From Rhodoluna limnophila (GTDB lineage: Bacteria; Actinomycetota; Actinomycetes; Actinomycetales; Microbacteriaceae), in contig NZ_CP040509.1 in the NCBI RefSeq assembly GCF_005845365.1, positions 62,001 through 126,000 on the forward strand: a stretch of DNA of 64,000 nucleotides. The letters run 5' to 3'. A program made the translations under genes and the position numbers. This document shows, piece after piece, positions 1 through 31,465 of the stretch. The notes beneath the pieces were generated by a model that worked only from the letters and a program-made list of their open reading frames with translations, was not told where the DNA came from and did not search any database. Within the stretch, counting starts at the first letter, position 1. The number at the start of each line of letters is the position of its first letter.

Positions 1-1
1 T

Positions 2-421
2 GGCAGTTCGTATGTCATTGCCTACTCGGATACTCCACCCAATTTCGCGGAACTCGCCGATGCTCCCCAGTGGCTGCTTGATGAAACAAAAACCGCGCAG
101 CTTAACGAGTACTCAGGGACTTTAGCTGACTGGATTGAAAACCTGAATCCCGCAACTGCCGATTATCGAGTGGTGGACGCTATCAAGCGATTCCCGACCG
201 AGGATTTCGATCACCAAGTAATGATCACCAAGCAGACCGAGCTCGTTCTACTTGGGGCAGCTGGACACCCAGGAATCGCCGAGGCGCTAGAGCTTTTCCA
301 GGCGCTCTGGCTCTTTGGCGATTACAACACAAACGAATACCGCATCGAATGGACTGCCGCTCTAGAGGGAGCTGTCCGCAAATTTGGCGGCCCTGAAGCA
401 AGCAAGGAAAAAAACAAATGA
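2..421 (+). CDS. DNA primase/polymerase, C-terminal part (partial)
   Basis: The reading frame is open from the window edge and encodes the last 139 residues of a longer protein. The segment SSYVIAYSDTPP followed by an APQWLL motif resembles the end of the bifunctional primase/polymerase (Prim-Pol) domain used by actinobacterial integrative plasmids and phages. The helical tail with GHPGIAEALELF is also typical of those proteins. The catalytic acidic residues would lie upstream, outside the window. Its stop overlaps the next start (ATGA at 418-421), so the two genes are translationally coupled. The partner is a RepA-like ATPase, which supports a replication role. A GTG at 170 is available, but the upstream codons stay open and look coding, so the gene is treated as 5'-truncated by the window. 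Confidence 0.55.
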   Translation, partial: GSSYVIAYSDTPPNFAELADAPQWLLDETKTAQLNEYSGTLADWIENLNPATADYRVVDAIKRFPTEDFDHQVMITKQTELVLLGAAGHPGIAEALELFQALWLFGDYNTNEYRIEWTAALEGAVRKFGGPEASKEKNK

Positions 422-1578
422 ACGACAACAGCAAATCTGCCCAAACCCTAAAAATTGCGGCGCTCGCCGAAATCAAATACGAAGAGATGAAGGCTACTGA
501 CGAGGCAAAGTCCAAAATCGCGTCTGAAAACTTCAACGGATCAATCGAACTGACACTCGAAGATTTGAAAGCTACCAAAGGCAGCTATCTGGTCGAAGAT
601 CTGATTTTTGTCGAGTCGATTAACTTCATGATCGCACGACCCAATCTCGGCAAGACCTATGCCTATGTGGACATGAGCTGCCGCATTGTCTTTGAGCTTC
701 CTTGGTTGGGCAAGCAAACGCGCTCAGGCAAGATCCTCATAGTTCTTGGCGAGGGTAAGGCGGGTTTTTATAAGCGTTTAGAGGCTTGGATTCAGGTACA
801 CGGGTATGACATGGATGACCTGCGAGGGAAACTATTTTTCATCGATGGCGCCAATCTGTTCAACGATGAAAGCATCAAAAAGATTTCTGATGTAGCTAAC
901 CGTGAAGCGGTGGATCTAATCATTTTTGATACCTGGGCGGCCACCTCGGGTGTCACCGATGAAAATGCGGGTGCATTGAATTCAGAGGCATTAAATCGCG
1001 CAGTCAAGATTCGCCCTGAATCAGCACTGCTATTCGTGCATCACCCAACGAAAAATACAGAGCAGACCGATCGCCCAGAAATGCGAGGATCAAGTGCTCT
1101 CAAGGGCCGCGCCGATTGTGTGATGACCATGTACGACGAAAGCAAGAGCTTCGTGCCAACCACGGGTGGAAAACAAGCCTGGATTGCGTTGTCCACTGAT
1201 TTTGCACATGGTGGCAAAAACCGCAATGCACTAACCGAAACCATTCGAGGGCTTTACCTTGCCGACATTGGAGAAGAGGGCAAGATCTTTACTCAGATTG
1301 AGTCTGAATCAATGTCGAAGCAAGCCTCTCGCGTGCGCGAGAAGTTGGTTGGCGTTATGACCGTGGTCGAATTCGCCAAAGCACTTCAAATGTCTGCGGC
1401 ATCAGCGCGACGTTACCTAGATAAGGCCACGTCAGAGGGGATTGCTGTCTGTCACAAGGGTGCAACGCCGACCGACGCAGATCGTTTTGAGCTGTCAGAA
1501 ACGGCAAAACGTTCAAAGGAACCGAACTTCGCCTACCTGGCTGAAGTAAACGAGATGAATAAGAAAAAGGAAATCTAA
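418..1578 (+). CDS. RepA-like AAA ATPase (replicative helicase)
   Basis: This 386-residue protein resembles the RecA-fold AAA_25/RepA hexameric helicases of plasmids, phages and satellites. The nucleotide-binding loop near residues 72-80 reads ARPNLGKTY: the GKT is present, but the usual first glycine of Walker A is alanine. A Walker B-like strand LIIFDTW lies near residue 164. The HHPTKN and MRGSSALKGRADCVMT segments match the sensor region of this family. The C-terminal 90 residues include a possible winged helix (VVEFAKALQMSAASARRYLDKA). The ATG overlaps the primase-polymerase stop, so the pair probably unwinds and primes the element's origin. It should act in the cytoplasm on DNA. The family assignment is good; activity of the altered loop is not known. 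Confidence 0.75.
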   Translation: MNDNSKSAQTLKIAALAEIKYEEMKATDEAKSKIASENFNGSIELTLEDLKATKGSYLVEDLIFVESINFMIARPNLGKTYAYVDMSCRIVFELPWLGKQTRSGKILIVLGEGKAGFYKRLEAWIQVHGYDMDDLRGKLFFIDGANLFNDESIKKISDVANREAVDLIIFDTWAATSGVTDENAGALNSEALNRAVKIRPESALLFVHHPTKNTEQTDRPEMRGSSALKGRADCVMTMYDESKSFVPTTGGKQAWIALSTDFAHGGKNRNALTETIRGLYLADIGEEGKIFTQIESESMSKQASRVREKLVGVMTVVEFAKALQMSAASARRYLDKATSEGIAVCHKGATPTDADRFELSETAKRSKEPNFAYLAEVNEMNKKKEI

Positions 1579-1580
1579 CT

Positions 1581-1988
1581 ATGGATGAAGAAATCACGGC
1601 ACGTCTACCTTTCGGGCCAGAACACCCCTGGTATGAGTTCGTGGCTGTTTATAAGCACCTGGCACTGAAGAAAACGCCGCACGGTGGGCTAAAGGAAGTA
1701 GCGGCCCGCTCAAGTTTGATCTCAGCAGGTTTGAAAATTAGCTCCACTTTCACTGAAACTCACGAGGTTGGTCGAATTAGCTTTCCGCTTTCTGATGTTG
1801 CCAAAGTTGGCAAGGAACTGCTGACCGTGCTTGAAGGTCGGGGGTGGGAACTGCTCACCCAGGGAAACGATCGTTTTGTTCTGAGAAAGTCGCTACCCCT
1901 ACAAAACGGTGAAACTACCATGCCTATGGCGTTTCTAAATGTCCTGCCACTGCTCGGAGTCAGCCCAAAACAGGACTGGTCAATCTAG
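1581..1988 (+). CDS. Hypothetical protein of the replication module
   Basis: This 135-residue soluble protein follows the RepA-like ATPase with a 2-base gap and is probably the last gene of the replication operon. I do not recognise a family. The N-terminus is acidic, the middle (about residues 60-105) alternates strands and helices, and the sequence ELLTVLEGRGWELLTQGNDRFVLRKS has the look of a small DNA- or protein-binding fold. There is no signal peptide, membrane helix or cysteine cluster. An accessory replication or copy-control role is a guess from position only. A 380-base intergenic region with nested inverted repeats follows. Confidence 0.6.
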   Translation: MDEEITARLPFGPEHPWYEFVAVYKHLALKKTPHGGLKEVAARSSLISAGLKISSTFTETHEVGRISFPLSDVAKVGKELLTVLEGRGWELLTQGNDRFVLRKSLPLQNGETTMPMAFLNVLPLLGVSPKQDWSI

Positions 1989-4328: not shown

Positions 4329-5615
4329 ATGAAGGACTCTGGAGTTAGTTGGCTTGGGGAAATACCAGAACACTGGTCCGTGGTGCCCCTCAAGACTGCA
4401 TTTACTCGGGTAAAGCGGAAACCTATTGAGGGCGCCGGAATCGTTACAGCTTTTCGTGACGGTGAAGTCACTCTTCGAAGTAATCGTCGTAGCGAGGGTT
4501 ACACAGAAGCGGACGACTACTCGGGCTACCAGCGAATTTTGCCCAACGATCTGGCGATTCACGCAATGGACGCGTTTGCTGGTGCAATTGGCGTGTCTGA
4601 TTCGGACGGAATGTGCTCTCCTGTCCTCTCAGTATGTGTTGCAAACTACGGCAATGATCCTCGATTCATGGGCTACCAGATAAGGCTCATGGCTAAACGA
4701 GGATGGATTGAATCATTAAGTCGTAGCGTTCGAGAACGCACCTCGGAGTTCAGATGGGCTGAAGCAGGAAAACAAAAGGTGGCCCTGCCTCCCGCCGATG
4801 AGCAGAAGTCTATCGCCGACTTCCTGGACCGGGAGCTGAGACTAATCACTGAGCTGACCGATTCTCAAGTGCGTTTCTTGGAACTCATCAAAGAACGACG
4901 GCAGCGTGAGATTGACTTGGCGGTGACAACTGGCTACCAATACAGCTCTGAGATGAAGGCCGTGAATTTGAATGGGATTCGGTCAGAAATCTTGTCTCAT
5001 TGGACGGTCAGGAAGTTAAAGTCGCTTTCAAGCCAGATTTCGAAAGGTACAACTCCGTCTACTCTCGGGGCAGCCTACGAATCTTCTGGTATCAGGTTCA
5101 TTCGGGGTGAGGACCTTGTGGATGGCAAACTCACTGATGAAGGGTCTGTTTTTATTTCGCACGAAGCACATGAAACCATGTCTAGATCGCAGCTCGCAGA
5201 CCAGGACATCCTCTATGTAATTGCAGGAACGCTTGGAAAAACCGCCCTAGTTCAGAGTCACCATTTGCCCTTAAATACGAATCAAGCGATTTGCTTCATT
5301 CGCCTCAAAAATAGGTGGATGGCAGAGTGGGTGAAATTCTGGCTTGAAAGTTCTCCTGCAAAAAACATTTCGTCAATGCTGGCCGTCACAGCAGCTCAAC
5401 CGAACTTGAGCATGGAAAGTCTTGGTTCGTTTGTTCTGCCAGTACCCAGCCGCTCTGAGCAGGAGGCGGCCGTCAAATACCTGAAACAAAATCTAGAAAA
5501 ACTTGACCTCCTAGCAGGAAAAGCCAAAACGCTCATTCGAGAATTGGAAGGTCGGCGTTCTGCCTTAGTCTCTGCGGCAGTCACAGGAAAGATCGATGTA
5601 CGGGGTAAGAGCTAA
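4329..5615 (+). CDS. hsdS: Type I restriction-modification specificity subunit HsdS
   Basis: This 428-residue specificity subunit has the usual two-fold organisation. Target-recognition domain 1 opens with SWLGEIPEHW (about residues 7-16). The first conserved helical spacer follows LPPADEQKSIADFLDRE (about 155-171). Domain 2 opens with HWTVRKLKSL near residue 225, and the second spacer follows VPSRSEQEAAVKYL near 377. Each domain reads half of a bipartite target, and the helices set the spacing and bind HsdM. The target sequence cannot be read from the protein by eye. The stop overlaps the hsdR start by one base (TAATG), which ensures coupled translation. No truncation or inverted domain copies are seen. 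Confidence 0.95.
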   Translation: MKDSGVSWLGEIPEHWSVVPLKTAFTRVKRKPIEGAGIVTAFRDGEVTLRSNRRSEGYTEADDYSGYQRILPNDLAIHAMDAFAGAIGVSDSDGMCSPVLSVCVANYGNDPRFMGYQIRLMAKRGWIESLSRSVRERTSEFRWAEAGKQKVALPPADEQKSIADFLDRELRLITELTDSQVRFLELIKERRQREIDLAVTTGYQYSSEMKAVNLNGIRSEILSHWTVRKLKSLSSQISKGTTPSTLGAAYESSGIRFIRGEDLVDGKLTDEGSVFISHEAHETMSRSQLADQDILYVIAGTLGKTALVQSHHLPLNTNQAICFIRLKNRWMAEWVKFWLESSPAKNISSMLAVTAAQPNLSMESLGSFVLPVPSRSEQEAAVKYLKQNLEKLDLLAGKAKTLIRELEGRRSALVSAAVTGKIDVRGKS

Positions 5616-8671: not shown

Positions 8672-9133
8672 ATGTCAGTGAATGGAAAGATCACCTCAAC
8701 CACAGAAGTTGATCAATTCATGCTCCAGGAGATTCTTTGGAGGCGCGAAGAGGCGAATTCCGCTCTCTCGAATCTTTACTTGCGTGGCACGGTCCTAACA
8801 GCATTGGCAGTTTCACTCATAGGCCTCGTAGTTTCAAGTACCAATTCGTTCGAGATCCGACTGTACTTTGCGGGAGTATTAACGGCGGCGGCTGTACTTG
8901 GCCTTATCTCCTTTTGGCCACTCAAGAACAGAAAATACAAACTTGCCACAATTGAGAAGACCCTTAAAGATAATGCAGATCAAGCAAACCTTTTCTATCT
9001 GGAATTTGTTAAGAAAGACTATTTGGCAATTGAAAAAGCGATTACTTGGAAAACCAAGCTCATAAAAATTGGCTTCATAGTTTGCATAGCGTCCTTGCCC
9101 GCCCTACTAGCCCTAATAATTGGAGATCAATAA
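8672..9133 (+). CDS. Three-helix membrane protein coupled to hsdR
   Basis: This 153-residue protein of unknown family begins directly after the hsdR stop. Residues 1-37 form a charged, probably amphipathic helix. Hydrophobic segments lie at about 38-56, 64-84 and 130-150. The 45 residues between helices two and three are charged and likely form a cytoplasmic helical hairpin. This layout is reminiscent of small pore-forming or SLATT-type effector proteins found beside defence genes, but I cannot assign it to any of them. A second small open reading frame starts 2 bases after its stop. Its position in the hsd operon suggests a role linked to restriction or abortive infection; that is inference from context only. 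Confidence 0.75.
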   Translation: MSVNGKITSTTEVDQFMLQEILWRREEANSALSNLYLRGTVLTALAVSLIGLVVSSTNSFEIRLYFAGVLTAAAVLGLISFWPLKNRKYKLATIEKTLKDNADQANLFYLEFVKKDYLAIEKAITWKTKLIKIGFIVCIASLPALLALIIGDQ

Positions 9134-9264: not shown

Positions 9265-9451
9265 CCGAATTGCGAGCAGGGGAGGTGGGGCTCGTGCCTC
9301 ATAGGGGCAGAGTTCGCTGTGCGACTTCCGTTTAGATTCCGTTCAACGGACGGAAACGGACGGAAACGGGCATATCTGTAAAGGGTGGCTTGACTAATAA
9401 AATACAGGGGTACATTGCCACTCAGGCTACATATATAGGTATTGCAACATA
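9265..9451. other. Non-coding end of the integrative element
   Basis: No gene is seen. The stretch holds a tandem repeat of GGACGGAAAC (two copies near 9350-9370) and a 13-mer AAAATACAGGGGT at 9399-9411 that recurs at 10754-10766. Short repeats next to a core attachment site can be arm sites for an integrase or excisionase; that is only a suggestion. Confidence 0.4.
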
Positions 9452-9494
9452 ACTACGGATCAGAAGGTTGGGGGTTCGAGTCCCTCCAAGCGCA
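9452..9494 (+). repeat. Attachment site: 3' half of tRNA-Arg(ACG)
   Basis: The 43 bases match, from memory, the actinobacterial tRNA-Arg(ACG) from the last base of the anticodon stem through the discriminator. The anticodon loop CTACGGA is at 9453-9459, the T-loop TTCGAGT lies between pairing GGGGG and CCCTC arms, and the acceptor strand CAAGCGC plus A ends at 9494. The 5' half that would pair with it is absent: the bases upstream (ATATATAGGTATTGCAACATA) are unrelated. It is therefore an att copy and not a working tRNA gene. Confidence 0.85.
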
Positions 9495-9496
9495 CG

Positions 9497-9536
9497 AAAC
9501 CCGGTTTCTTCTCACGAGAGCCGGGTTTTCTTTTTT
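9497..9536 (+). terminator. tRNA-type intrinsic terminator, copy 1
   Basis: An 8-bp stem (AAACCCGG at 9497-9504 with CCGGGTTT at 9521-9528) is followed by a T-rich run. It sits directly after the tRNA end. A closely similar hairpin follows the decayed tRNA copy at 11970, so the duplicated unit includes the terminator. Confidence 0.8.
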
Positions 9537-9566
9537 ACGCCGCAGGTCATGCCTTCAACTTCTGTT

Positions 9567-9983
9567 CTAGCGGCAGCTGTGATTTCGCCAGCGCACCTTG
9601 AAAACTTCCTCGGCGCTTCTTCCCTGCAGGGCGCGCGTATACATTGAGGCGTTGATGCTGCGGTTTATAACGTGCCCCTCGGTCGACAGGTCAAGGTACT
9701 GGCCACGAACCTCGTAATCGTCACCCAATTCCAGTTCCAACTTGAACTTCAAAGCGAGTGCCGACTCGTTCAGCTTTTTCAGCGTCTCCGAATCATCGAC
9801 GTAGAAGCTATCTGTGACTTTGCAATCATGAATTGACCCCTTGAATTGTTTGTTTAGCGCGTAGGCTTCGATTTTCAGAACGTCCGAAATCGGCGCAAGT
9901 TCTGGAAAGTCACCGATTTCGTTCCTAAACCACAGCGGCCAGGCCATCCAAGGCTCAATACAAATGTCAACCGCAATCCTCAA
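9567..9983 (-). CDS. Hypothetical protein downstream of YozG-like regulator
   Basis: About 138 residues, soluble, with no family that I recognise. A TTG at 9983 overlaps the stop of the upstream HTH gene (TTGA), and an ATG at 9947 is the alternative start. A longer ATG version from 10031 would overlap the regulator by about 50 bases and reads arginine-rich shadow sequence, so it is less likely. The N-terminus CIEPWMAWPLWFRNEIGDFPELA is tryptophan-rich. The rest mixes strands and helices, with the acidic stretch LELELGDDYEVRGQYLDLS. It belongs to the leftward three-gene operon DUF2975 - HTH - this gene, inside a small island bounded by tRNA fragments. Confidence 0.6.
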   Translation of the reverse strand: MRIAVDICIEPWMAWPLWFRNEIGDFPELAPISDVLKIEAYALNKQFKGSIHDCKVTDSFYVDDSETLKKLNESALALKFKLELELGDDYEVRGQYLDLSTEGHVINRSINASMYTRALQGRSAEEVFKVRWRNHSCR

Positions 9984-10183
9984 GGCTCGTACCGCAGAAT
10001 ATCTCCTGGTTGGCAGTCGAGCGCTTCGCATAACGCTGCCAAGGTTGAGAACCTCACGGCCCGTGCCCGATTGTTTTTTAGAACAAATAGATTTGCCTGA
10101 GTAATTCCAATTTTGTCTGCGAGTTGGGCAACAGTTAGTCCCTTTTTCTCTCGAAGTAGCTCAAAGTCGACAACGATAGCCAT
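9980..10183 (-). CDS. YozG-like Cro/C1-type HTH regulator
   Basis: This 67-residue protein is nearly all a helix-turn-helix domain: LTVAQLADKIGITQANLFVLKNNRARAVRFSTLAALCEALDCQPGDILRYEP. That matches the YozG-type XRE family, which is regularly paired with a DUF2975 membrane protein, as it is here (10184-10678). The genes abut with no gap, the regulator being second in the operon. A 34-base near-perfect palindrome just upstream of the operon is the obvious candidate operator, implying autoregulation. The signal sensed by such pairs is not established. Confidence 0.9.
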   Translation of the reverse strand: MAIVVDFELLREKKGLTVAQLADKIGITQANLFVLKNNRARAVRFSTLAALCEALDCQPGDILRYEP

Positions 10184-10678
10184 CTAGACACCTCCTTCAA
10201 GTTCTTCAGTCGCTGAGGTTGCCCGCCGGAGAAGCTTCAGCAAGCTGTGAGTGACTGCAGAAACTGCGAGGCAGAAAATCGTAAGTGCAATCAGCACGAG
10301 GAAAACCAAAGGAGGCAACGCCGCTTTCGAACTGAGCCACATCCCCAAGGCGACAAAAGAGGCAGCAAGAACTAAAGCGGTAATCGCAAGGAGCCTAACC
10401 CACTTGTAAACACTCCTAGAGAACATGCGGTTCAGGTGCACTAATCGCTGCAAATACATAACCTCCAGAAAGGCTGCCGAAGCACTCAACATCGGAATGG
10501 TCAGAGCGATTTGAATTGTCAGCTCGTCGTCTGAAAACTCAGAATAGCGAGAAGCAAGCTCGAGGCTAAATTGAGGCACCACGAAGTAAATGACGGCGGC
10601 GGCGGCCAAGATCAAAATGGCTAGAAATAGCTGACCAAAAAATAAGCTTGAGTTTTTGATTTTCTTGCACCTTTCCAT
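10184..10678 (-). CDS. DUF2975 family membrane protein
   Basis: This 164-residue integral membrane protein has four hydrophobic segments at about 15-36, 58-75, 93-114 and 121-145, the DUF2975 layout. It stands first in a leftward operon with the YozG-type regulator (0-base spacing). The pair is commonly conserved in Gram-positive bacteria, and the membrane protein is thought to influence the regulator, but its biochemical role is unknown. The start codon lies only two bases from a large palindrome, so transcription or translation initiation can be blocked directly. The gene lies in a small island flanked by attachment-site copies, so it was probably acquired. Confidence 0.85.
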   Translation of the reverse strand: MERCKKIKNSSLFFGQLFLAILILAAAAVIYFVVPQFSLELASRYSEFSDDELTIQIALTIPMLSASAAFLEVMYLQRLVHLNRMFSRSVYKWVRLLAITALVLAASFVALGMWLSSKAALPPLVFLVLIALTIFCLAVSAVTHSLLKLLRRATSATEELEGGV

Positions 10679-10680
10679 GT

Positions 10681-10714
10681 ACTATCGTTAAACAATAGAT
10701 TGTTTAACGATAGT
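10681..10714. promoter_or_regulatory. Large palindromic operator upstream of the DUF2975 operon
   Basis: Arms ACTATCGTTAAACAAT (10681-10696) and ATTGTTTAACGATAGT (10699-10714) are perfect 16-bp inverted repeats with a 2-base centre. The site begins 2 bases from the DUF2975 start codon. It is a likely operator for the HTH protein encoded in the same operon, or a regulatory hairpin. Confidence 0.75.
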
Positions 10715-10773
10715 CTATCGAATAAGTGCAACATGGCACGTCAACGAAATTTCAAAATACAGGGGTCAATAAA

Positions 10774-10833
10774 ATGCGACTAAAAACAACACTTGTCATC
10801 GGTGGCCCCTGCACGACAGCAACTTCCTTCTAA
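10774..10833 (+). CDS. Possible 19-residue leader peptide
   Basis: ATG at 10774 has AGGGG at 10761-10765 upstream. The frame encodes MRLKTTLVIGGPCTTATSF and stops at 10831-10833. Its TAA overlaps the AAGGA ribosome-binding site of the next membrane protein (start at 10845), so translation of the two could be coupled. The ribosome-binding site is part of the 13-mer repeated at 9399. The coding nature is unproven. Confidence 0.25.
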   Translation: MRLKTTLVIGGPCTTATSF

Positions 10834-10844
10834 GGACCCTACCG

Positions 10845-11261
10845 ATGCCATATTGGAAAATCTTTATCACCCTAATGTTTTTGCTGAGCGCGCTTTACAT
10901 TTTGGAAGCATCGGGCCTCCTGGGGCTCACAGGCGTTGGATTTACCTTTGACGCCAGCAGAGTGTTAGCAACTTGGCCATTCGCAATCGTCGCCGCGCCG
11001 CTCTACCTTGCCAGTGGTTACCCTCCTGCCTGGGCAAATGTGGTTTCGGGCTTGAGGCTAGTTACACGACCAGCAAAGAGAGTGCACCAGCAAATTTTGT
11101 TCTGGGCCAAGGCATTAAGCTACTCGATCCTGATTGTTGTCGTGGCAATCTGGGTGGCGAGGTCCTTTACTGAGCCATTTGCGTGGACAAGGCTTGTTTT
11201 GACGCTGGCTATGCTCATAGCCATTCCAACTGCGTTTAAGCGATTGTTGGAACGACGCTAA
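10845..11261 (+). CDS. Hypothetical four-helix membrane protein
   Basis: This 138-residue protein has hydrophobic segments at about 5-27, 42-60, 86-106 and 112-130, and positively charged ends. I do not recognise the family. AAGGA at 10832-10836 gives a well-spaced ribosome-binding site for the ATG. It lies alone on the plus strand between the divergent DUF2975 operon and a convergent membrane protein gene. All of these sit in the island between the two tRNA-Arg fragments, so it is accessory gene content of unknown role. Confidence 0.65.
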   Translation: MPYWKIFITLMFLLSALYILEASGLLGLTGVGFTFDASRVLATWPFAIVAAPLYLASGYPPAWANVVSGLRLVTRPAKRVHQQILFWAKALSYSILIVVVAIWVARSFTEPFAWTRLVLTLAMLIAIPTAFKRLLERR

Positions 11262-11338
11262 ACCGAATATCAAGCCAACTAGATGCAAATAGCGCCCTGA
11301 CGTGCCTAACGCTGAGAGGACTCGTTCGGGGCCCCCGT

Positions 11339-11797
11339 TTAAGCCCGTGCTGGCGCCGTCCTCGTTTCAATGGCCAGCGCAATCGATGAGATAGTAAGCA
11401 CAAATGCCGCAACAAACCAAATGATTCCCGTTTCAGAAGTTGAATACCAAACGACCCCATGCCAGCTGGAAAATCCCAATAAAACTGCTGCATCCGCTAA
11501 TAAGCATGGCCAATTTCGGTCTGGCCTGGCTAAATTAGTGAGGGTACCGATAGCTACCAGGAAGCCAATCAAAGCCAAATTCAGTGTCGGCAGGTCTGTG
11601 AGAAAAAAACTAAAGCACGTGATGCTGGCCAAGCCCAGCGTCATTTTGTTCCAGAAGCTGAGTTGAAACAGAGACTCTAAGGCAAGCGCAGCACCAAAGA
11701 GAACTCCGAACACTTGAGGGCCGATGAGTAAAGCTGCTAGAGACATACAAAAGTAAAGGGCTCCGCGACCCCTGGAGAACCGAATTAGATTCGTCAT
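11339..11797 (-). CDS. Hypothetical multi-pass membrane protein
   Basis: This 152-residue protein is very hydrophobic, with four or five predicted membrane helices: about 14-38, 48-66, 70-88, 96-112 and 122-142. No catalytic or binding motif is evident and no family is recognised. The general look (short loops, SSWHGVVWYSTSETGIIWFVAAFV near the end) recalls small DoxX- or DUF-type membrane proteins, but the match is too weak to name. It is convergent with the previous gene and is the last gene before the decayed attachment site. Confidence 0.6.
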   Translation of the reverse strand: MTNLIRFSRGRGALYFCMSLAALLIGPQVFGVLFGAALALESLFQLSFWNKMTLGLASITCFSFFLTDLPTLNLALIGFLVAIGTLTNLARPDRNWPCLLADAAVLLGFSSWHGVVWYSTSETGIIWFVAAFVLTISSIALAIETRTAPARA

Positions 11798-11930
11798 CAG
11801 CGTGAACTACAGGCCTCCCTCGGTACTCCAATTGGAACCATGAATAGTTTGCACTCTAAAGTTCAAAGGACTCACTACCCTGGTCAATTTGTTTAAGAGT
11901 AACTGTGTGATGTAACGCGCGCGCCAACCA

Positions 11931-11958
11931 TTCAGAATGTCGAGTCTCTCCAAGCGCA
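11931..11958 (+). repeat. Decayed second copy of the tRNA-Arg 3' end
   Basis: TCGAGTCTCTCCAAGCGCA at 11940-11958 differs by one base from the intact copy ending at 9494. TTCAGAA before it matches ATCAGAA of the anticodon stem side, with about 8 bases of the T-arm side lost. Such a fragment is best explained as an older attachment-site scar. Confidence 0.75.
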
Positions 11959-11969
11959 CAGGGTGAGAC

Positions 11970-12002
11970 CCCGGCTCCCTTCTCACGAGAGCCGGGTTTT
12001 CA
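11970..12002 (+). terminator. tRNA-type intrinsic terminator, copy 2
   Basis: CCCGGCTC (11970-11977) pairs with GAGCCGGG (11989-11996) and is followed by a T-run. The segment TTCTCACGAGAGCCGGGTTTTC is shared with the terminator at 9497, confirming the duplication of the tRNA end plus terminator. Confidence 0.8.
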
Positions 12003-23847: not shown

Positions 23848-25158
23848 TCAACTTACGGCTGCAGCTGACTTTGCGGCCAGCTTTGCCACTGACTCAATCT
23901 TCTCGATGTCGGCATCGGTGTGGGCCCCTGATACAAACCAGGCCTCGAAGGCTGATGGCGGCAGTGAGACACCGTTTTCAAGCATGGCGTGGAAGAACGC
24001 GTTGAATGCCTTGGTGTTCTGAGTCTGGGCATCGGCAAAAGTCACGACTGGCTTATCAGTGAAGAAGAATGAGAACAGGTTGCCACCGAATTGGGTTTGG
24101 TGAGCCACGCCCTCAGCGGTCAGTGCCGCCGAGATTACCTCGCCGACCTGCTTGGCGCGCAGGTCCAGGGTGTCATACAGTGCAGGGTCACAAAGTTCGA
24201 GAGTCGCAAGTCCGGCGGCAGTTGCTACCGGGTTTCCGCTTAGGGTTCCGGCCTGATACACCGAACCCAGCGGAGCCAATAGGTTCATGACCTTGGCCCT
24301 GCCAGCAACGGCAGCTACCGGGTAACCGCCACCGATTACCTTGCCGTAGGTCAGGATGTCGGGTTCCCAGCCCTCGCTTGGGTTGACCAAGCCCCACCAG
24401 CCACCTGCAGAAACTCTGAAGCCGGTCATTACCTCGTCGAGAATCATCAGCGCACCGTGCTTTGCCGTGATTTCACGAATCTTGCCGTTGAAGTTGTTGA
24501 TCGGTGGAACCACACCCATGTTGGCAGGGGTTGGTTCGGTAATCACGGCAGCGATTTCGTGACCACGCGCGGCAAATAGTTGCTCGAGCGCAGCGGCATC
24601 GTTGTAAGGCAGAACCACAGTGTCTTGCGCCTGGCCAGGGGTAACGCCGGGTGAGTTTGGCAGACCGAGGGTGAGCACACCAGAGCCGGCCTGAACCAAA
24701 AGTGCGTCACTGTGGCCGTGATAGCAGCCGGCAAACTTGACGATGACGTTGCGGTTGGTGGCGGCACGTGCCAAACGCACAGCGGTCATAACGGCCTCGG
24801 TGCCTGAAGAAACAAACCGCACGCGTTCGGCAATTACAACGCGCTTGGTGATTTCTTCGGCAAGCAAAACCTCGTTTGGGCTCGGTGCTCCGAAAGAAGC
24901 CGATAGGGCCGCCGCTTCAGTAACCTTGGCCACAACGTGATCGTGGGCGTGGCCAACAATCATTGGGCCCCATGAGCCAACTAGGTCAACGTACTCGTTG
25001 CCGTCGACATCCCAAATGCGCGAACCTTTGCCGCGAACAAAATAGCGCGGATTGCCGCCAACGCCAGAGAATGCTCGAACCGGTGAGCTAACTCCACCGG
25101 GAATTACATTTTGCGCGCGGTTGTGCCAAGCAATTGAGGCATCGATGTTTTGGTTCAT
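23848..25158 (-). CDS. hemL: Glutamate-1-semialdehyde 2,1-aminomutase
   Basis: This 436-residue PLP enzyme converts glutamate-1-semialdehyde to 5-aminolevulinate, the second committed step of the C5 haem route. [20 protein letters not shown] (about 116-135) binds the cofactor. The catalytic lysine is in [11 protein letters not shown] near residue 266. The length matches the family. It is the last gene of the leftward operon hemA-hemCD-hemB-hemL and overlaps the hemB stop by one base. A shared bidirectional terminator ends the operon. Confidence 0.97.
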
Positions 25159-26144
25159 TAGAGGGTCTTTCGTGCGTAGAACATCTCGGCAAGTTCAAGT
25201 GCCCAGTAGGTGCAAATCACATTTGCGCCAGCCCGGCGCACCGATGCAACCGCCTCGAGGATGGCCCGCTCACGGTCAATCAAACCTTGCTCGGCTGCCA
25301 GCTCAATCATTGCCATCTCGCCCGAGACCAAGTAGGCGGCAACCGGAACATCAACGCTCTGGGCAGTCTCGCGAATGACATCTAGGTAGGCCAAAGCTGG
25401 CTTCACCATCACGATGTCGGCACCCTGCTCAACGTCTAGGCGTACCTCACGCATTGACTCGATGAAGTTGCGTGGGTCTTGCTGGTAGGTTCGGCGGTCG
25501 CCATCAAGTTCAGACTCAACGGCATCGCGAAATGGACCATAAAAGGCACTGGCGTATTTAGCCGAGTAGGCCAGTATCGAGACATCGGTGTAGCCAGCTT
25601 CGTCAAGTTGTTGCCGCACGTAACCAACCTGGCCATCCATCATGCCGCTGGCGCCCAGCATGTGAGCGCCGGCCTTGGCCAACTCAACTGCCATGCGTCC
25701 ATAAGCCACGAGCGTTGCATCGTTGTCAACGTTTCCGTGATCATCGAGCACACCGCAGTGCCCGTGACTGGTGAACTCATCAAGGCAAAGATCGGCCACT
25801 ACAACTAACTTGTCGCCAGCGTGTTTGCGCACGGCAGCAACCGCGCGGTTCAAGATTCCATTTGGCTCGCAGGCCGCCGAACCCAGTTCATCGCGCTCAG
25901 CCGGAATACCAAAAATCATGATTCCACCGATGCCGGCAGCAATCGCGCGGTCAACTTTGGCTAGCAGTGAGGCTTCGGTGTTTTGAAAAACTCCCGGCAG
26001 GCCTTTGATCGGCTTTGGCTCGGTCAGGCCCTCTTTGATAAAAGTTGGGTAAATCAGTTGGCTCGGCACAACAGTGGTCTCGGCAACGAGGTTGCGCATT
26101 GCCTGAGTGGTTCGCAGTCGGCGTGGGCGTTCAATCAAACTCAT
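25158..26144 (-). CDS. hemB: Delta-aminolevulinic acid dehydratase (porphobilinogen synthase)
   Basis: This 328-residue enzyme condenses two 5-aminolevulinate molecules to porphobilinogen. The two Schiff-base lysines are in [16 protein letters not shown] and [11 protein letters not shown]. The metal site reads [12 protein letters not shown]120 and C130 are kept, but D122 stands where zinc-dependent enzymes have the middle cysteine. This mixed C-D-C ligand set is different from both the all-cysteine zinc type and the cysteine-free magnesium type. The gene overlaps hemCD (ATGA) and hemL, so it is in the middle of the operon. Confidence 0.97.
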
Positions 26145-27814
26145 GCTGTTCTCCTGTTGCTGGCGGCTTCTACCAGTGCAGCCGGGGTGGTCCCGTTGGT
26201 CAGAGCAATGTTGCTAAATCCAAGTTTCTTTGCCTGTTCCAGTGTGGCATTGCCGGTCACCAAAACCAGAGTGGCCAAGTCTTTAGGGGTAACAAAACTG
26301 GCCACCGCACGGGCCGCACTTGGTGAGCGCAACACCAAAACATCGATGTCACCTTGCGCTAGCGCCTTTGCAGTTCGAGGCTCAGAAGTCACTGTCTCGG
26401 TGGTGTAGACCACATCGGTGACGAGGTCAACGCCCGCAAAAGTTACTGCGTCTTGCAGTGACTTCATGGCAATGCTTGATGCAGGCAGAATTACGCGCTT
26501 TGGATTGTGTACCAAGATTGACTGGCTCAGTGAGACCGCATTGGCCGCATCGGCAAGCAACACATCACCGACGCCCAGGGCCTTAACCTCGGCAGCGCTG
26601 CGTTCGCCGATTGCTGCAAATCTCAGGTTTGGGTTGGCAATCGCAGCCTGCAGCGCAACCATGCCAACCTGCTCGGCAAAGTAGCGCACTGCGTTTATCG
26701 AGGTAATTACCAACCAGGTGTCTGGCTCGGCATTGACCAGGGCGTCTAGCATTCGGCCCGCGCCGACCGGGTTTTCAAAGTTAGAAATCTGCAGGTAGGC
26801 GTCACTAATCACGTTGAAACCGGCCGCCTCAAAGGCATCTGAGTCTGGTTTGTTGTCACTTGAACGCACCAGCAACACCGATTTCTCGCGCGGGGTGCCA
26901 AGCTTCAGGCCAAGATCGGTCTGCATCAATTGATCAGCAACCTTTAGGCCCAGTGAGCGGGTCTTAGCCAAGGTTGCTTCTGCAGCATCGATAGAGATCG
27001 AGATCCGCTCATGCCAATCAGAGTCATTGTCAGAGAGCTCAGCCGTAAGTTGAATCAGCCCGCCCTCGATTACCGCGTGGGCTCCGATAGCGGTCGTGCA
27101 AGAGGCCGAGATGCCTCGCAATACGGCTCGCTCGGCTGAGACCAGAAGCTCAGTTTGAGCGTGATTGATTTTGTGCAGTTCGGCCAATAGCTCGTGGTCG
27201 TCCGAACGGCACTCAATGGCTAGTGCGCCCTGGGCTGGCGCTGGTAGCAGTTCATCGTCGGTAAAAAAGTTGCTGTCCCCCTGTCGCAGACCAACCCGAT
27301 TGAGCCCTGCTGCGGCAAGAATTGTCGCGTCGAATTCGCCGTCATCAATCTTCTTTAGGCGGGTATCGATGTTGCCGCGGATGGGCTTGACCTCAAGGTC
27401 TGGGCGCAGGTGCTTTACGCGCGCGGCTCGTCGCGGAGATGATGTGCCGACCACTGAACCTGCCGGTAGATCAGCCAAGGTCAGCCCATCGCGGCTAATC
27501 AAAATGTCACGGTAGTCCTCGCGCTGCGGAATGGCTGCCAACGTGATGCCAGCCAAGGGTGCAGAGGGTAGATCTTTGAACGAGTGCACGATGTAATCGA
27601 CTTCACCGGCAAGCAGCGCGTCTCTAAGGGAAGAAACAAAAACACCTGGGCGCTTTGGGGCAAACAGATTGCTGGCTGGGTTGTCACCCTCGGTCTTAAT
27701 AAACACGAGTTGGCTTTCGAGGCCGGTAGCTGCAAGAACCTGGTCGGCAATCATGCCCGACTGGGTTTTGGCTAGCAAGCTGGCACGGGTGCCAAGCTTC
27801 AAGACCCTACTTGG
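26141..27814 (-). CDS. hemCD: Fused hydroxymethylbilane synthase / uroporphyrinogen-III synthase
   Basis: This 557-residue two-domain enzyme performs two consecutive steps, making the tetrapyrrole chain and closing it to uroporphyrinogen III. Residues 1 to about 305 are HemC: LKLGTRASLLAKTQSG at the start, HSFKDLP, GTSSPRRAARVKHLRPDLEVKPIRGNIDTRL, and the dipyrromethane-cofactor cysteine in ISASCTTAIGAHA. From about 320, LLVRSSDNKPDSDAFEAAGF begins the HemD domain, with ITSINAVRYFAEQ and SPSAARAVASF. The start chosen is ATG at 27814 (MPSRVLKLGTR), which overlaps the last codons of hemA by eight bases. A longer upstream version reads hemA out of frame. Fusion avoids release of the unstable intermediate. 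Confidence 0.95.
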   Translation of the reverse strand, partial: PSRVLKLGTRASLLAKTQSGMIADQVLAATGLESQLVFIKTEGDNPASNLFAPKRPGVFVSSLRDALLAGEVDYIVHSFKDLPSAPLAGITLAAIPQREDYRDILISRDGLTLADLPAGSVVGTSSPRRAARVKHLRPDLEVKPIRGNIDTRLKKIDDGEFDATILAAAGLNRVGLRQGDSNFFTDDELLPAPAQGALAIECRSDDHELLAELHKINHAQTELLVSAERAVLRGISASCTTAIGAHAVIEGGLIQLTAELSDNDSDWHERISISIDAAEATLAKTRSLGLKVADQLMQTDLGLKLGTPREKSVLLVRSSDNKPDSDAFEAAGFNVISDAYLQISNFENPVGAGRMLDALVNAEPDTWLVITSINAVRYFAEQVGMVALQAAIANPNLRFAAIGERSAAEVKALGVGDVLLADAANAVSLSQSILVHNPKRVILPASSIAMKSLQDAVTFAGVDLVTDVVYTTETVTSEPRTAKALAQGDIDVLVLRSPSAARAVASFVTPKDLATLVLVTGNATLEQAKKLGFSNIALTNGTTPAALVEAASNRRTA

Positions 27815-29072
27815 CATCGGCCACGCGGTTGATTTCGATGCCGAAGACCATGCGAAGGGCATCGATGAACTGCTTTTCGTTGCCTTCTTTTGCCGAAGTC
27901 TTAGCGGCCAAAGTTGGTACGTGCATAAAGGTTGAAGTCACTCTCTTTAAACTGCGATGAACCTCTTCAGCCATTTCGTCGCCCGATTTATTTCTAACTC
28001 GTTCGACTTCTTCTTCAATCAGTTGGGCAATGTGCTTGCGCATTGCCACCACCATTGGGTCTGCGGCACGGGCAATTGCTTCATTCTCAAAATCGCTTAC
28101 CTGGTGGCGCACAATTTCTTGGGCTCGCAGAATTGCCTCGCTGTGCTCACTCGGAGTGTGCAGGCGAATGTAATCGAGGTCCATGATCGATACGCCGGAA
28201 AGGTCGTAGACCGGAGGTGCAACGTCGGCCGACAAGGCCACATCGATGATGCGCAATTCTTTTGACTCAATAGCCAACACGGCTTTGGCAAGTTTGAAGT
28301 CGATCATGTGGCCGCTGCCTCCGCTGGCAGTCACGGTAAAGTCGCAGGCCGCCATGGTCTCGGCTAGCTCAGCCTTGGCAATCGGGGTTGCCCCGCGGCC
28401 TTCACTAAATTCTTCGGCGCGGCCGCTCGATGAGTAAACAAAAACCTGCGCAACGTTCTCGCGCTGCAAAGCGGCCACCACAACGCGGGCGTATGCACCC
28501 GTACCCATGACCAAAACCTTATTGCCCTCGATAGGGCCAAACTTTTCTTTGTGCAGTGCAAGGGCGGCTGTAAAAACTGAGCGCCCAGCTTCGCCGAGGC
28601 CGGTCTCGTTAGAAACCTTTTTTGCCACCTGAGCTGCAGACTGAAACAGCTTCTCGATCTCGGTTGAAGTGTGTGAATCTGCCTGGGCTACCTGCAGGCT
28701 GCGCTTTACCTGGCCGGCAATTTCGCCTTCGCCAACAATCATCGATTCAAGGCCTGAGGTTACCGAGTAGAGGTGTTGAACCGCTGCCGAACCGTAGCTA
28801 ACGCGCAGCAGCTTGCTGCAGTAATCCCGGTCGAGGCCAGTAATTTCTGAAACCACACCGATTACATTCTCAACGGCGCTGTGAAACCGATCGGTGTCTA
28901 GGTAGACCTCAAAGCGGTTGCAAGTACCAATGGCAACGCCCCCGCTGATGCCGCTTTCTTCTTTTGAAATTGAAAAAAGTTTGCTGCGAATTGAATCGGT
29001 GTGACGTTCAAGATTTTCTAGTTCACTCAACGGGATGTCGTTGTAATTGGCGCCTAGCAATACGAGAGTCAC
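27807..29072 (-). CDS. hemA: Glutamyl-tRNA reductase
   Basis: This 421-residue NADPH enzyme reduces glutamyl-tRNA to glutamate-1-semialdehyde, the first step of the C5 pathway. The catalytic cysteine is C51 in IGTCNRFEVYLDT. The NADPH-binding region contains VLVMGTGAYARVVVAALQR, and the C-terminal dimerisation helices are present. The GTG start is set by a leaderless promoter: TAGAAT (complement of 29079-29084), six bases, then GTG. It is first in the leftward haem operon and divergent from hemE, with only about 50 bases between, so both halves of the pathway can share control. Confidence 0.97.
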   Translation of the reverse strand: MTLVLLGANYNDIPLSELENLERHTDSIRSKLFSISKEESGISGGVAIGTCNRFEVYLDTDRFHSAVENVIGVVSEITGLDRDYCSKLLRVSYGSAAVQHLYSVTSGLESMIVGEGEIAGQVKRSLQVAQADSHTSTEIEKLFQSAAQVAKKVSNETGLGEAGRSVFTAALALHKEKFGPIEGNKVLVMGTGAYARVVVAALQRENVAQVFVYSSSGRAEEFSEGRGATPIAKAELAETMAACDFTVTASGGSGHMIDFKLAKAVLAIESKELRIIDVALSADVAPPVYDLSGVSIMDLDYIRLHTPSEHSEAILRAQEIVRHQVSDFENEAIARAADPMVVAMRKHIAQLIEEEVERVRNKSGDEMAEEVHRSLKRVTSTFMHVPTLAAKTSAKEGNEKQFIDALRMVFGIEINRVADAK

Positions 29073-29078
29073 AGGTAA

Positions 29079-29084
29079 ATTCTA
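29079..29084 (-). promoter_or_regulatory. Leaderless -10 box of hemA operon
   Basis: On the minus strand TAGAAT is followed by TTACCT and then GTG at 29072. The spacing puts the transcription start on the start codon, so the mRNA has no leader. Confidence 0.65.
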
Positions 29085-29108
29085 AGCGCCGAGTGATTGC
29101 CCCGGCCA

Positions 29109-29117
29109 TGTAATGAT
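29109..29117 (+). promoter_or_regulatory. Extended -10 box of hemE operon, probably leaderless
   Basis: TGTAATGAT has the TG-N extension. Its hexamer AATGAT is six bases from the GTG at 29124. No ribosome-binding site exists in front of hemE. Confidence 0.5.
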
Positions 29118-29123
29118 TAATTG

Positions 29124-30182
29124 GTGAACCTACCTAGCGCGCACCCACTTGCCTCCGGAAAAACCTCAAACTCCCTACTGGTCAGGTCTTACCTGGGTGA
29201 GAAGACCGAGAGCAAAGCCATTTGGCTAATGCGTCAGGCCGGGCGTTCGCTACCGGAGTATCGCAAAGTGCGCGAGGGCGTTGCCATGTTGGACTCTTGC
29301 TTGCGACCAGAGCTAGCTGCTGAGATCACCATGCAGCCGGTCCGCCGCCACAAAGTGGACGCAGCTATTTTCTTTAGCGACATCGTGGTACCACTGAAAC
29401 TAGCTGGAGTAAACGTTGAAATTGCCCCGGGCATTGGGCCGGTACTAGAAAACCCGATTCGCACCCGAGCCAACTTTGAGCGCCTTGAAGAGTTGGACCC
29501 GGCCAGCCTTGCACCGATTACCGAGGCGATCGGGTTGATTACCGCCGAGCTTGGCGAGACCCCACTGATTGGTTTTGGTGGCGCACCCTTCACCTTGGCG
29601 TCTTACCTAATTGAGGGCGGGCCGTCAAAAGAGTTGCCAGTTAGCCGCGCGATGATGGCCAACGACCCAGACCTGTGGAATGACATTTTGGCGTGGACTG
29701 CCCGGGTTACCGCAACCTTTATCCGTGGCCAGGTGTTGGCCGGTGCCAGTGCGCTGCAACTCTTTGACTCATGGGCCGGCCGACTGGGCCTCGAAGATTA
29801 CAAAAAGTTTGCGGCGCCACATTCAAAGGCAGTCATGGATTCACTGCTTGACCTGCCGGTGTCTCGCGTTCACTTTGGGGTTCAGACCAAAGACCTACTT
29901 GCCGAAATGTATGGCGTTGGTGCAACTGTTATGGGTGTTGACTATGAGACTCCGCTTGACGAAGCCAACCGAATTCTTGGCGGAAAAGTGCCGCTTCAGG
30001 GAAACATTAACCCAGACTTCTTGTTCAAACCTTGGGCAGAGCTTGAGGCTCATGTTCGCGATGTTATTGCCCGAGGCGAGAGTGCGCCGGGTCACGTTGT
30101 GAACCTGGGTCACGGTGTTCCGCCAGAAACCGACCCAGACGTGATCACAAAAATGGTTGCCCTAGTCCACGGAGATATCTAG
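29124..30182 (+). CDS. hemE: Uroporphyrinogen decarboxylase
   Basis: This protein of about 352 residues removes the four acetate carboxyls of uroporphyrinogen III to give coproporphyrinogen III. The signature WLMRQAGRSLPEYRKVR lies at about residues 35-51, and the second conserved block GFGGAPFTLASYLIEGG lies near 152-168. GTG at 29124 is preferred over TTG at 29121 because of the -10 spacing. It opens the rightward operon hemE-hemY-hemQ-hemH, and its stop is six bases before the next start. All expected active-site segments are intact. Confidence 0.95.
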   Translation: MNLPSAHPLASGKTSNSLLVRSYLGEKTESKAIWLMRQAGRSLPEYRKVREGVAMLDSCLRPELAAEITMQPVRRHKVDAAIFFSDIVVPLKLAGVNVEIAPGIGPVLENPIRTRANFERLEELDPASLAPITEAIGLITAELGETPLIGFGGAPFTLASYLIEGGPSKELPVSRAMMANDPDLWNDILAWTARVTATFIRGQVLAGASALQLFDSWAGRLGLEDYKKFAAPHSKAVMDSLLDLPVSRVHFGVQTKDLLAEMYGVGATVMGVDYETPLDEANRILGGKVPLQGNINPDFLFKPWAELEAHVRDVIARGESAPGHVVNLGHGVPPETDPDVITKMVALVHGDI

Positions 30183-30187
30183 ACCCA

Positions 30188-31465
30188 ATGCCCAAAACCG
30201 CTGCAGTAGTTGGCGCCGGAATCGCAGGATTGGTTTCGGCTAAGCAACTAATTGAAGCTGGTTATCAGGTTGAAATCTTTGAAAGCAGCGGCCGAGTCGG
30301 CGGACTAATTGCGTCAGCCAACCTTGGTGGTCACCTCATCGACATCGGTGCTGAAGCTTTTGCCGTGGCAAAAAACACCGTTCCCGAGCTTTGCGCCGAA
30401 TTGGGTATTGAGCAGCTGATAGTTTCGCCACAGCGCAGCGATGCCAGAATCCTCACCAGCGGCGGTGCCCACCTGATTCCTCACGGGGTACTCGGTATTC
30501 CGAGCAGCCTTGATGACCCAGCAGTTGTCGATGTGGTCGGAGCCGATGCCGTGGCGGCCGCAAAGATTCTTGATGCCCAACCGTGGGCGGCTGCCCCAGA
30601 CATCACTATCGGTGCCCTGGTTGAGGCAAGGCTAGGTCGGGCATTTGTCGATAATTTCTTAACGCCGGTTATTGCCGGGGTCCATTCATCTGATGCCATG
30701 ACTCTCGAGGCAGCCACGGTCGCGCCGGGCCTTTTGGCCAAGGCAGCGGAGCTTGGTTCACTAGTGGCGGCAGTCGGGGCAACCAGAAATTCTGCCGCCC
30801 GGCCAGGCGCTGCGGTGGCATCAATATCCGGTGGAATGCACAGGTTAGTAAGCGCACTTGAAAGCCATCTGATCAAAGCCGGTGCCAAGATTCACCTCAA
30901 CCGTCCGGTGGAGTCCCTAGCTGAACTGGATGCTTTCGATCGAGTCGTTTTGGCTGCCGGAATTGAGGGTGCCGCGCACCTATTCGCCGACCTGGCGTCT
31001 ATCCGCGGTGTTGATGCAGCGGTGGTTGCACTCTTGGTCGAGTCAGAGCAACTTAACGAGATGCCTCGAGGTAGCGGTGTTTTGGTGGCCGCCGACGTTG
31101 AGGGCATCAGTGCCAAGGCCGCCACACACGTCAACGCCAAGTGGGCTTGGGTCAATTCTGAGTTGCCGCCAAACCAGCACATTTTGCGTTTTTCATTTGG
31201 CCGCAATGGCATCCTGCCGGCTCACACAGATTCTCTCGCTGCGCTCGCCGAGGCGGATGCAGCCAAGATCTTCGGTGTCGAGGACATCCGGGTGGTTGAA
31301 TCTGTGACTCAACTCTGGCCCAAAGCTTTGGTGCAACCCGGTCCGGGGCACTCGGTTATCGTCAAGCGGGTTAGAGCGGCGCTGGCCGCTGATGACCGTC
31401 TGGCAATCATCGGTGCTGGGCTCGGGGGAAACGGCATTACTGGAATTCTGAGCGAAGGAAGATGA
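30188..31465 (+). CDS. hemY: Coproporphyrinogen III oxidase (HemY/CgoX-type)
   Basis: This 425-residue FAD enzyme has the dinucleotide motif [33 protein letters not shown] at residues 6-38 and a closing FAD segment [16 protein letters not shown]. In organisms that also have HemQ, as here, this HemG/HemY-type enzyme oxidises coproporphyrinogen III to coproporphyrin III. The neighbours (hemE before, hemQ and hemH after) fit this coproporphyrin route. It is slightly shorter than the usual 450-470 residues, and the C-terminus ends soon after the last FAD motif. Its TGA overlaps the hemQ start. Confidence 0.92.

What the first reader, a model, noticed from the sequence alone, without database searches (positions are those of the whole stretch)
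9452..9494. tRNA-Arg(ACG) 3' half marks the right end of an integrative element
Seen: a 43-base fragment running from the anticodon loop to the discriminator, without any 5' half, directly after an hsd operon. Known: tyrosine integrases commonly use tRNA 3' halves as attachment sites. It places the prim-pol/RepA-like module and hsdMSR in one mobile element whose other end is left of the window.
Basis: partly seen in the sequence, partly recalled or inferred. Interest (0 to 1): 0.6.

Follow-up and report, generated by a model that had tools for sequence, protein, structure and literature searches.

The report
tRNA-anchored mobile element with restriction genes
The tRNA fragment is the far end of a 14-kb mobile element carrying an integrase, replication genes and a restriction system, inserted in a tRNA gene where related bacteria keep other gene blocks, in one case a whole heme-making pathway.

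Summary
Window 9452-9495 (44 bp, one base longer than stated) is identical to the 3' end of an intact tRNA-Arg(ACG) 14.2 kb to the left, at C1:57244-57317. A 417-aa tyrosine integrase lies between them. A relative, G025, lacks the 14.2-kb insert: its sequence runs from the tRNA straight into window 9452 onward. Prim-pol, the AAA_25 ATPase and hsdMSR therefore lie in one integrated element.

Beyond the finding: (1) tRNA-Arg(ACG) is an accretion site. A second, decayed tRNA end lies at window 11940-12001; 12 of 19 genomes I looked into have partial copies behind an intact tRNA. (2) A 112-bp arm inside the right end matches 8 of 67 genomes, including beside cassettes without integrase: ABC/two-component, beta-oxidation, and a nine-enzyme heme pathway. 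(3) The ABC cassette is 99.84% identical over 6,420 bp between two species whose rho region is 80% identical, stopping exactly at the tRNA end.

This is a new member of a known class, tRNA-anchored islands with non-autonomous neighbours (CIMEs, Dehalococcoides ssrA islands, tycheposons). Excision was not observed.

The parts
9452..9495 (+). attR core: 44 bp identical to the 3' end of tRNA-Arg(ACG) (C1:57274-57317 is the attL copy)
9326..9451 (+). right arm: TTCCGTT repeats plus a conserved stretch; 112 bp of it (9340-9451) matches 8 of 67 genomes of the genus
   Evidence: reading it as integrase-binding sites is inference
1..421 (+). 3' part of the prim-pol gene (whole gene C1:61570-62421, 283 aa)
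   Evidence: Pfam Prim-Pol E 6.2e-15
418..1578 (+). AAA_25 ATPase, RepA-like, 386 aa
   Evidence: Pfam AAA_25 E 8.4e-17; PHROG 906 E 1.7e-32
1581..1988 (+). 135-aa ORF of unknown role; relative after the prim-pol/ATPase gene in G049
   Evidence: 47% over 135 aa
2368..4323 (+). hsdM, type I methyltransferase subunit, 651 aa
   Evidence: PADLOC E 4.3e-277
4329..5615 (+). hsdS, type I specificity subunit, 428 aa
5615..8671 (+). hsdR, type I restriction subunit, 1018 aa
   Evidence: PADLOC E 5.7e-36; NCBIfam hsdR E 1e-53 but below its cut-off
8672..9133 (+). 153-aa ORF, no family match at E 0.001
9496..11939 (.). probable older insertion between the attR core and a decayed tRNA-Arg end; small ORFs of unknown role
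   Evidence: inference from the two boundaries and the loss of synteny with G025 in between
11940..12001 (+). decayed tRNA-Arg 3' end plus its terminator (81% over 62 bp)
   Evidence: E 8.6e-11

Best explanation
The fragment is the attR core of a 14.2-kb integrative element (C1:57274-71495) inserted in the 3' end of tRNA-Arg(ACG). SHOWN: two identical 44-bp cores, an integrase gene between them, a relative without the insert, and the same 18-bp repeat inside both ends. INFERRED: the integrase binds the TTCCGTT repeats and recombines the two cores to excise a circle; prim-pol and the AAA_25 ATPase replicate it; the element re-enters tRNA-Arg and rebuilds the tRNA 3' end at attL; hsdMSR is swappable defence cargo. 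Older insertions remain behind it as layers bounded by tRNA 3' ends. Cassettes that keep the arm and core but have no integrase can move when an integrase of this family acts on them, or when carried along with a neighbouring element. How DNA passes between cells is unknown; no conjugation or packaging gene was recognised among the proteins scanned.
For: Identical core and intact tRNA; integrase with Phage_integrase E 2.7e-23 and R, K, HxxR, H, Y positions kept in 4 aligned integrases (roles recalled); site without the insert in G025; TTCCGTTTAGATTCCGTT exactly twice in the 19-kb locus L004, once inside each end; the arm in 8 of 67 genomes, next to a tRNA core in 7 of the 8; relatives of the integrase beside the same tRNA with other cargo; near-identical cassette in two species ending at the core.
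Against: No excised circle was seen. No excisionase was recognised in G000. The arm is absent from 59 of 67 genomes, and many tRNA fragments in the genus lack it, so this integrase family explains only part of the hotspot. G001 and G005 cassettes lack the left-end repeat and may no longer be able to move. Relatives of the integrase and ATPase were not found in viral contigs, so no carrier is known.
Confidence: 0.88

Rival explanations
1. The site is a fossil. The G000 element is integrated but no longer moves, and the integrase-free cassettes are fixed remnants spread by ordinary homologous recombination between shared flanks.
For: No excision seen; a decayed tRNA end at 11940-12001 and a degraded left end of the ABC cassette in G058 show that decay happens; left-end repeats are missing in G001 and G005.
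Against: The G000 cores are identical and the integrase frame is open. The ABC cassette is 99.84% identical in two species while the sequences just outside it differ, and identity stops at the last base of the core; homologous recombination would need shared flanks.
Confidence: 0.2
2. It is an actinomycete conjugative element (AICE) or a prophage or phage satellite rather than a separate kind of island.
For: AICEs often have a tyrosine integrase, a tRNA 3' site and Prim-Pol with a replication protein (PMC3218068, passages).
Against: No FtsK/SpoIIIE protein, capsid or terminase among the element proteins scanned; no confirmed relatives of the integrase or ATPase in viral contigs. HsdM and HsdR were scanned with PADLOC and NCBIfam only, and ORFs under 79 aa were not scanned.
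Confidence: 0.08
3. The fragment is a chance duplicate or a decayed tRNA gene with no mobile element.
For: Nothing beyond the missing 5' half.
Against: Integrase, matching core, site without the insert, and shared arm.
Confidence: 0.01

Closest known systems
Dehalococcoides ssrA genomic islands (PMC3146451; passages read)
   Same: Tandem islands bounded by the 3' end of one RNA gene and its direct repeats; an integration module in some (16) and none in others (15); cargo with a history different from the integration module; a conserved motif next to the repeat.
   Different: There the integrase is a serine recombinase and the site is ssrA (20-bp repeat). Here it is a tyrosine integrase at tRNA-Arg with a 44-bp core and a ~112-bp conserved arm; the cargo is restriction, transport and biosynthesis instead of dehalogenases.
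CIMEs, cis-mobilizable elements left by ICE/IME decay and accretion (PMC5704250; passages)
   Same: Segments that keep att sites but have no integration genes, in tandem with an element that has them.
   Different: No conjugative parent was seen. For G001 and G005 the left arm is missing, so retained attL function is doubtful.
Tycheposons and additive flexible islands of plankton (PMC10872708, passages; the original tycheposon paper was not read)
   Same: tRNA-bordered islands with a tyrosine recombinase and metabolic cargo in streamlined plankton; repeats of a tRNA 3' end (20 bp of tRNA-Lys); heme genes among the cargo of one.
   Different: Other phylum, other tRNA; here integrase-bearing and integrase-free units share a long arm. 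Common descent was not tested.
AICEs of Actinobacteria (PMC3218068; passages)
   Same: Tyrosine integrase, tRNA 3' end, Prim-Pol next to a replication protein.
   Different: No FtsK/SpoIIIE transfer protein found among the proteins scanned.

Membership tests
tRNA-integrated tyrosine-integrase element | Direct repeat of the tRNA 3' end at the far boundary | tested here: met
   44 bp identical
tRNA-integrated tyrosine-integrase element | Tyrosine integrase gene between the repeats | tested here: met
   Pfam Phage_integrase E 2.7e-23; catalytic positions kept
tRNA-integrated tyrosine-integrase element | A relative with the site unoccupied by this element | tested here: met
   G025; an older, different segment follows there too
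tRNA-integrated tyrosine-integrase element | Excision as a circle | not testable with these tools
   needs PCR or reads
AICE | Integrase plus Rep/Prim-Pol module | tested here: met
AICE | FtsK/SpoIIIE transfer protein | tested here: not met
   none among the element proteins scanned; not every small ORF was scanned
CIME (for the integrase-free cassettes) | att core at both ends and no integrase | tested here: met
   met for the ABC cassette in G049 (both cores; 6 of 7 ORFs scanned); in G058 the left core is degraded; in G001 and G005 both cores are present but the left arm is not
CIME (for the integrase-free cassettes) | Mobilised through its att sites by a neighbour's integrase | not testable with these tools
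   indirect support only: 99.84% identity ending at the core
Phage satellite | Packaging or capsid-remodelling genes, or presence in virions | tested here: inconclusive
   no such PHROG among 9 proteins scanned; no viral-contig relatives confirmed; several ORFs unknown
Tycheposon | tRNA border, tyrosine recombinase, cargo | tested here: met
   description as passed on in PMC10872708
Tycheposon | Common descent with the Prochlorococcus elements | not tested
   resemblance only

The most novel reading that the evidence does not exclude
tRNA-Arg(ACG) works as a plug-in port for this genus. An integrase family encoded by small defence-carrying elements also moves integrase-free cassettes that share its ~112-bp attachment arm, so whole pathways, heme synthesis included, are gained and lost in one step between species of a lineage in which heme genes are patchy.
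Probability: 0.35. Interest if true: 0.68.

Novelty: new member of a known kind. Interest (0 to 1): 0.5.

Why it matters
It suggests how bacteria with streamlined ~1.4-Mb genomes can exchange defence and metabolic genes at one site. It gives a sequence tag (44-bp core plus ~112-bp arm) for finding such cassettes. It also makes a question testable: is the ability to make heme a mobile trait in a group where it is patchy?

Tried and rejected
Viral or plasmid origin: an exact arm pattern gave 0 stretches in viral contigs; the integrase (2 stretches) and the ATPase (14 stretches) gave pattern matches there but no confirmed relative. Phage records hold only distant integrases: 2325 of 2325 matching records under 60% identity, the 8 listed at 27-30%. 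Plasmid records hold only distant ATPases: 9 records, all under 60%.

Spread outside the genus: the arm with core at E 1e-17 in 1 of 396 genomes drawn from the order, the own one; the integrase at E 1e-60 in 2 of 398 drawn from the family, the own one and one at 35% identity.

p210, next to the integrase in all four element types, and p291 have no family match at E 0.001. Very weak Pfam lines (sigma-70 region 4 for two p210 relatives, E about 0.1; DUF5677 for p291, E 0.047) were not used. No fold was run: those proteins lie outside the window, and the fold tool states which sequences it takes.

Measuring divergence of G049 from G058 with G049 contig C37 failed (only 204 bp matched) and rpoB was found in neither bin; the rho region served.

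Full report
1. OBSERVATION. The window is C1:62001-126000 of a 1,398,704-bp single-contig genome. Window 9452-9495 holds 44 bp from the anticodon arm to the end of a tRNA-Arg(ACG); no tRNA gene is called in the window. The same 44 bp end the intact tRNA-Arg(ACG) at C1:57244-57317. From core start to core start is 14,178 bp.

2. THE ELEMENT. From left to right (L004 = C1:54001-73000): tRNA-Arg/attL core; a 290-aa ORF; a 291-aa ORF; a 417-aa tyrosine integrase at C1:59167-60420, minus strand; a 210-aa ORF next to it; a 79-aa ORF; prim-pol, 283 aa; AAA_25 ATPase, 386 aa (window 418-1578); a 135-aa ORF; hsdM, hsdS, hsdR; a 153-aa ORF; the right arm; the attR core. The 290-aa ORF looked DUF3800-like by eye, which Pfam did not confirm; the gene beyond p291 in G049 does match DUF3800, E 5.5e-17. 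Four aligned integrases (G000, G049, G048, G058) keep the R, K, HxxR, H and Y positions (roles recalled). GC is 0.50 in the element, 0.55 in the left flank, 0.53 in the right flank.

3. SITE WITHOUT THE INSERT. In G025, a complete genome of the same genus (rpoB segment 98.6% identical), L030 1-1841 matches L004 1481-3322 at 94%, through the intact tRNA; from L030 1794 it matches window 9452-9979 at 89%. The two matches overlap by 48 bp, essentially the core. The 14.2 kb is either an insertion in G000 or a precise loss in G025; with an integrase inside, both are the same reaction.

4. OLDER LAYER. Window 11940-12001 is a decayed tRNA-Arg end plus terminator (81% over 62 bp, E 8.6e-11); synteny with G025 resumes at window 12347. 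Window 9496-11939 is thus probably an older insertion. G025 is empty only of the newer one: after the first ~480 bp its own sequence up to the resumed synteny differs.

5. A HOTSPOT. A search with the tRNA-Ser/tRNA-Arg region matched 59 of 67 genomes of the genus (some matches are to tRNA-Ser only, and the printed list was cut). I looked into 19 genomes: 16 chosen because they looked informative, plus G000, G049 and G058, so not a random sample. In one search, 12 of the 19 show an intact tRNA-Arg and at least one further partial copy downstream on the same strand (G000, G001, G005, G033, G040, G046, G048, G055, G056, G058, G065, G066); 4 show partial copies while an intact tRNA is on another contig or was not found (G009 two, G015 four, G028 two, G049 two); G032 shows one diverged copy, its tRNA lying outside the fetched stretch; G025 and G036 show the tRNA alone. 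Odd cases: the copy in G040 covers tRNA bases 7-52 only, and G055 has two full copies and a 17-74 copy. Of the 25 copies printed, 7 carry the arm described next (G000, G001, G005, G048, G058, two in G049); the others do not visibly, so other integrases or decay must be involved.

6. THE SHARED ARM. Window 9340-9451 matched 8 of 67 genomes at E 0.001: G000, G001 (94%), G005 (91%), G049 (two places, 92% and 89% over 72 bp), G058 (92%), G031 (82%), G055 (89% over 80 bp), G048 (79% over 62 bp). It abuts a tRNA-Arg core in 7 of the 8; in G055 it lies elsewhere in the genome, followed only by a 17-bp remnant-like match to the tRNA (E 0.002). A degenerate exact pattern in genome contigs gave 6 stretches on 5 contigs, all titled Microbacteriaceae; the genus name was not established. 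TTCCGTTTAGATTCCGTT occurs twice in L004, once inside each end; the same kind of double repeat follows the tRNA in G048 and G058. Reading the arm as integrase-binding sites is inference.

7. CASSETTES WITHOUT INTEGRASE. (a) G049 and G058: ABC transporter plus two-component system; 6 of its 7 ORFs of 70 aa or more were scanned, none an integrase. It is 99.844% identical over 6,420 bp (10 mismatches) between the two, while the rho region is 79.98% identical over 2,388 columns. On the right, identity stops at the last base of the core. On the left it starts at the end of the core or in the terminator in G049, where G058 has a degraded sequence. Of 67 genomes only these 2 hold the cassette; 14 others gave short weak matches. 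In both an integrase-bearing element lies to its left, but the integrases differ (90% and 46% identical to that of G000). Both genomes are binned and incomplete, but each junction lies inside one contig. (b) G001: acyl-CoA oxidase, enoyl-CoA hydratase, thiolase, 3-hydroxyacyl-CoA dehydrogenase, 7.4 kb; 4 of 5 ORFs scanned. The gene to the right of its core lies 52 bp after the intact tRNA in G052 and about 280 bp after it in G044, so those lack the cassette. (c) G005: 10.4 kb with ferrochelatase, HemQ-type, HemY-like oxidase, HemE, HemA, HemC, HemD, HemB, HemL-type aminotransferase and a TetR regulator; 10 of 10 ORFs scanned (Hem names given from the Pfam families and gene order). Its core has two changed bases near the start. 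G001 and G005 lack the left-end repeat, and no genome with the G005 flanks but without its cassette was found. These two may be stranded cargo.

8. HEME. HemB was found in 7 of 67 genomes, 6 of 22 among those at least 90% complete and at most 5% contaminated; absence in incomplete bins is weak evidence. In G000 the cluster is at window 23896-33266, in G025 at the matching place, in G001 elsewhere; in G058, G018 and G020 the 20 kb fetched held only hemA, C, D, B and L. Only in G005 does it lie between tRNA cores. Its HemB is 56-61% identical to the others; HemH 81-86%. PMC12381374 (passages) reports heme auxotrophy for Rhodoluna, a genus of the same family; whether this genome is Rhodoluna was not established.

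9. MODULARITY. G048 carries an hsd element at the same tRNA: HsdM 86%, HsdR 80%, HsdS 27% identical, but integrase 50%, ATPase 38%, prim-pol 38%. Cargo and core have different histories, and the specificity subunit differs most.

10. MECHANISM AND LIMITS. Recombination by the integrase at the tRNA is strongly supported by anatomy. Replication by prim-pol/ATPase, action of the integrase on the cassettes in trans, and the route between cells are inferred or unknown. No excision was observed. No excisionase was recognised in G000; G058 has a 73-aa ORF with a weak HTH_17 match (E 0.01, below cut-off).

11. NOVELTY. Accretion at an RNA gene with integrase-free members is known: Dehalococcoides ssrA islands (PMC3146451, passages), CIMEs (PMC5704250, passages), additive islands and tycheposons of plankton, one with heme genes (PMC10872708, passages). 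My searches (open-licence papers only) listed no title or abstract on this tRNA-Arg site. I therefore call it a new member of a known kind. Its strongest points are the long shared arm, the near-identical cassette in two species, and a heme pathway as cargo.

Noticed in passing
window 23896-33266: A nine-gene heme cluster (hemL, B, D, C, A, E, Y, Q, H by similarity to G005) sits here, at the same place in G025 but elsewhere or not found in other genomes of the genus.
   Followed up: partly
L072:3433-3478 (G040): A partial tRNA-Arg copy covering bases 7-52, without the 3' end, unlike the other copies.
   Followed up: no
L061 (G055): Two full tRNA-Arg copies and a 17-74 copy flank an element with a different integrase (24% identical) and an HsdM relative (28%), possibly another type I restriction system.
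   Followed up: no
L103:9953-10032 (G055): The arm (89% over 80 bp) lies here away from the tRNA-Arg locus, perhaps a remnant of another insertion.
   Followed up: no
L065 (G033): 17 kb between tRNA-Arg copies with genes that by eye look metabolic (cytochrome P450, aldehyde dehydrogenase, transporter); no arm seen. Families were not scanned.
   Followed up: no
L092:4455-4610: Arm (92%) and full core in a named Microbacteriaceae bin, next to genes that by eye resemble a cation-efflux and a redox protein; probably a further cassette. Families were not scanned.
   Followed up: no
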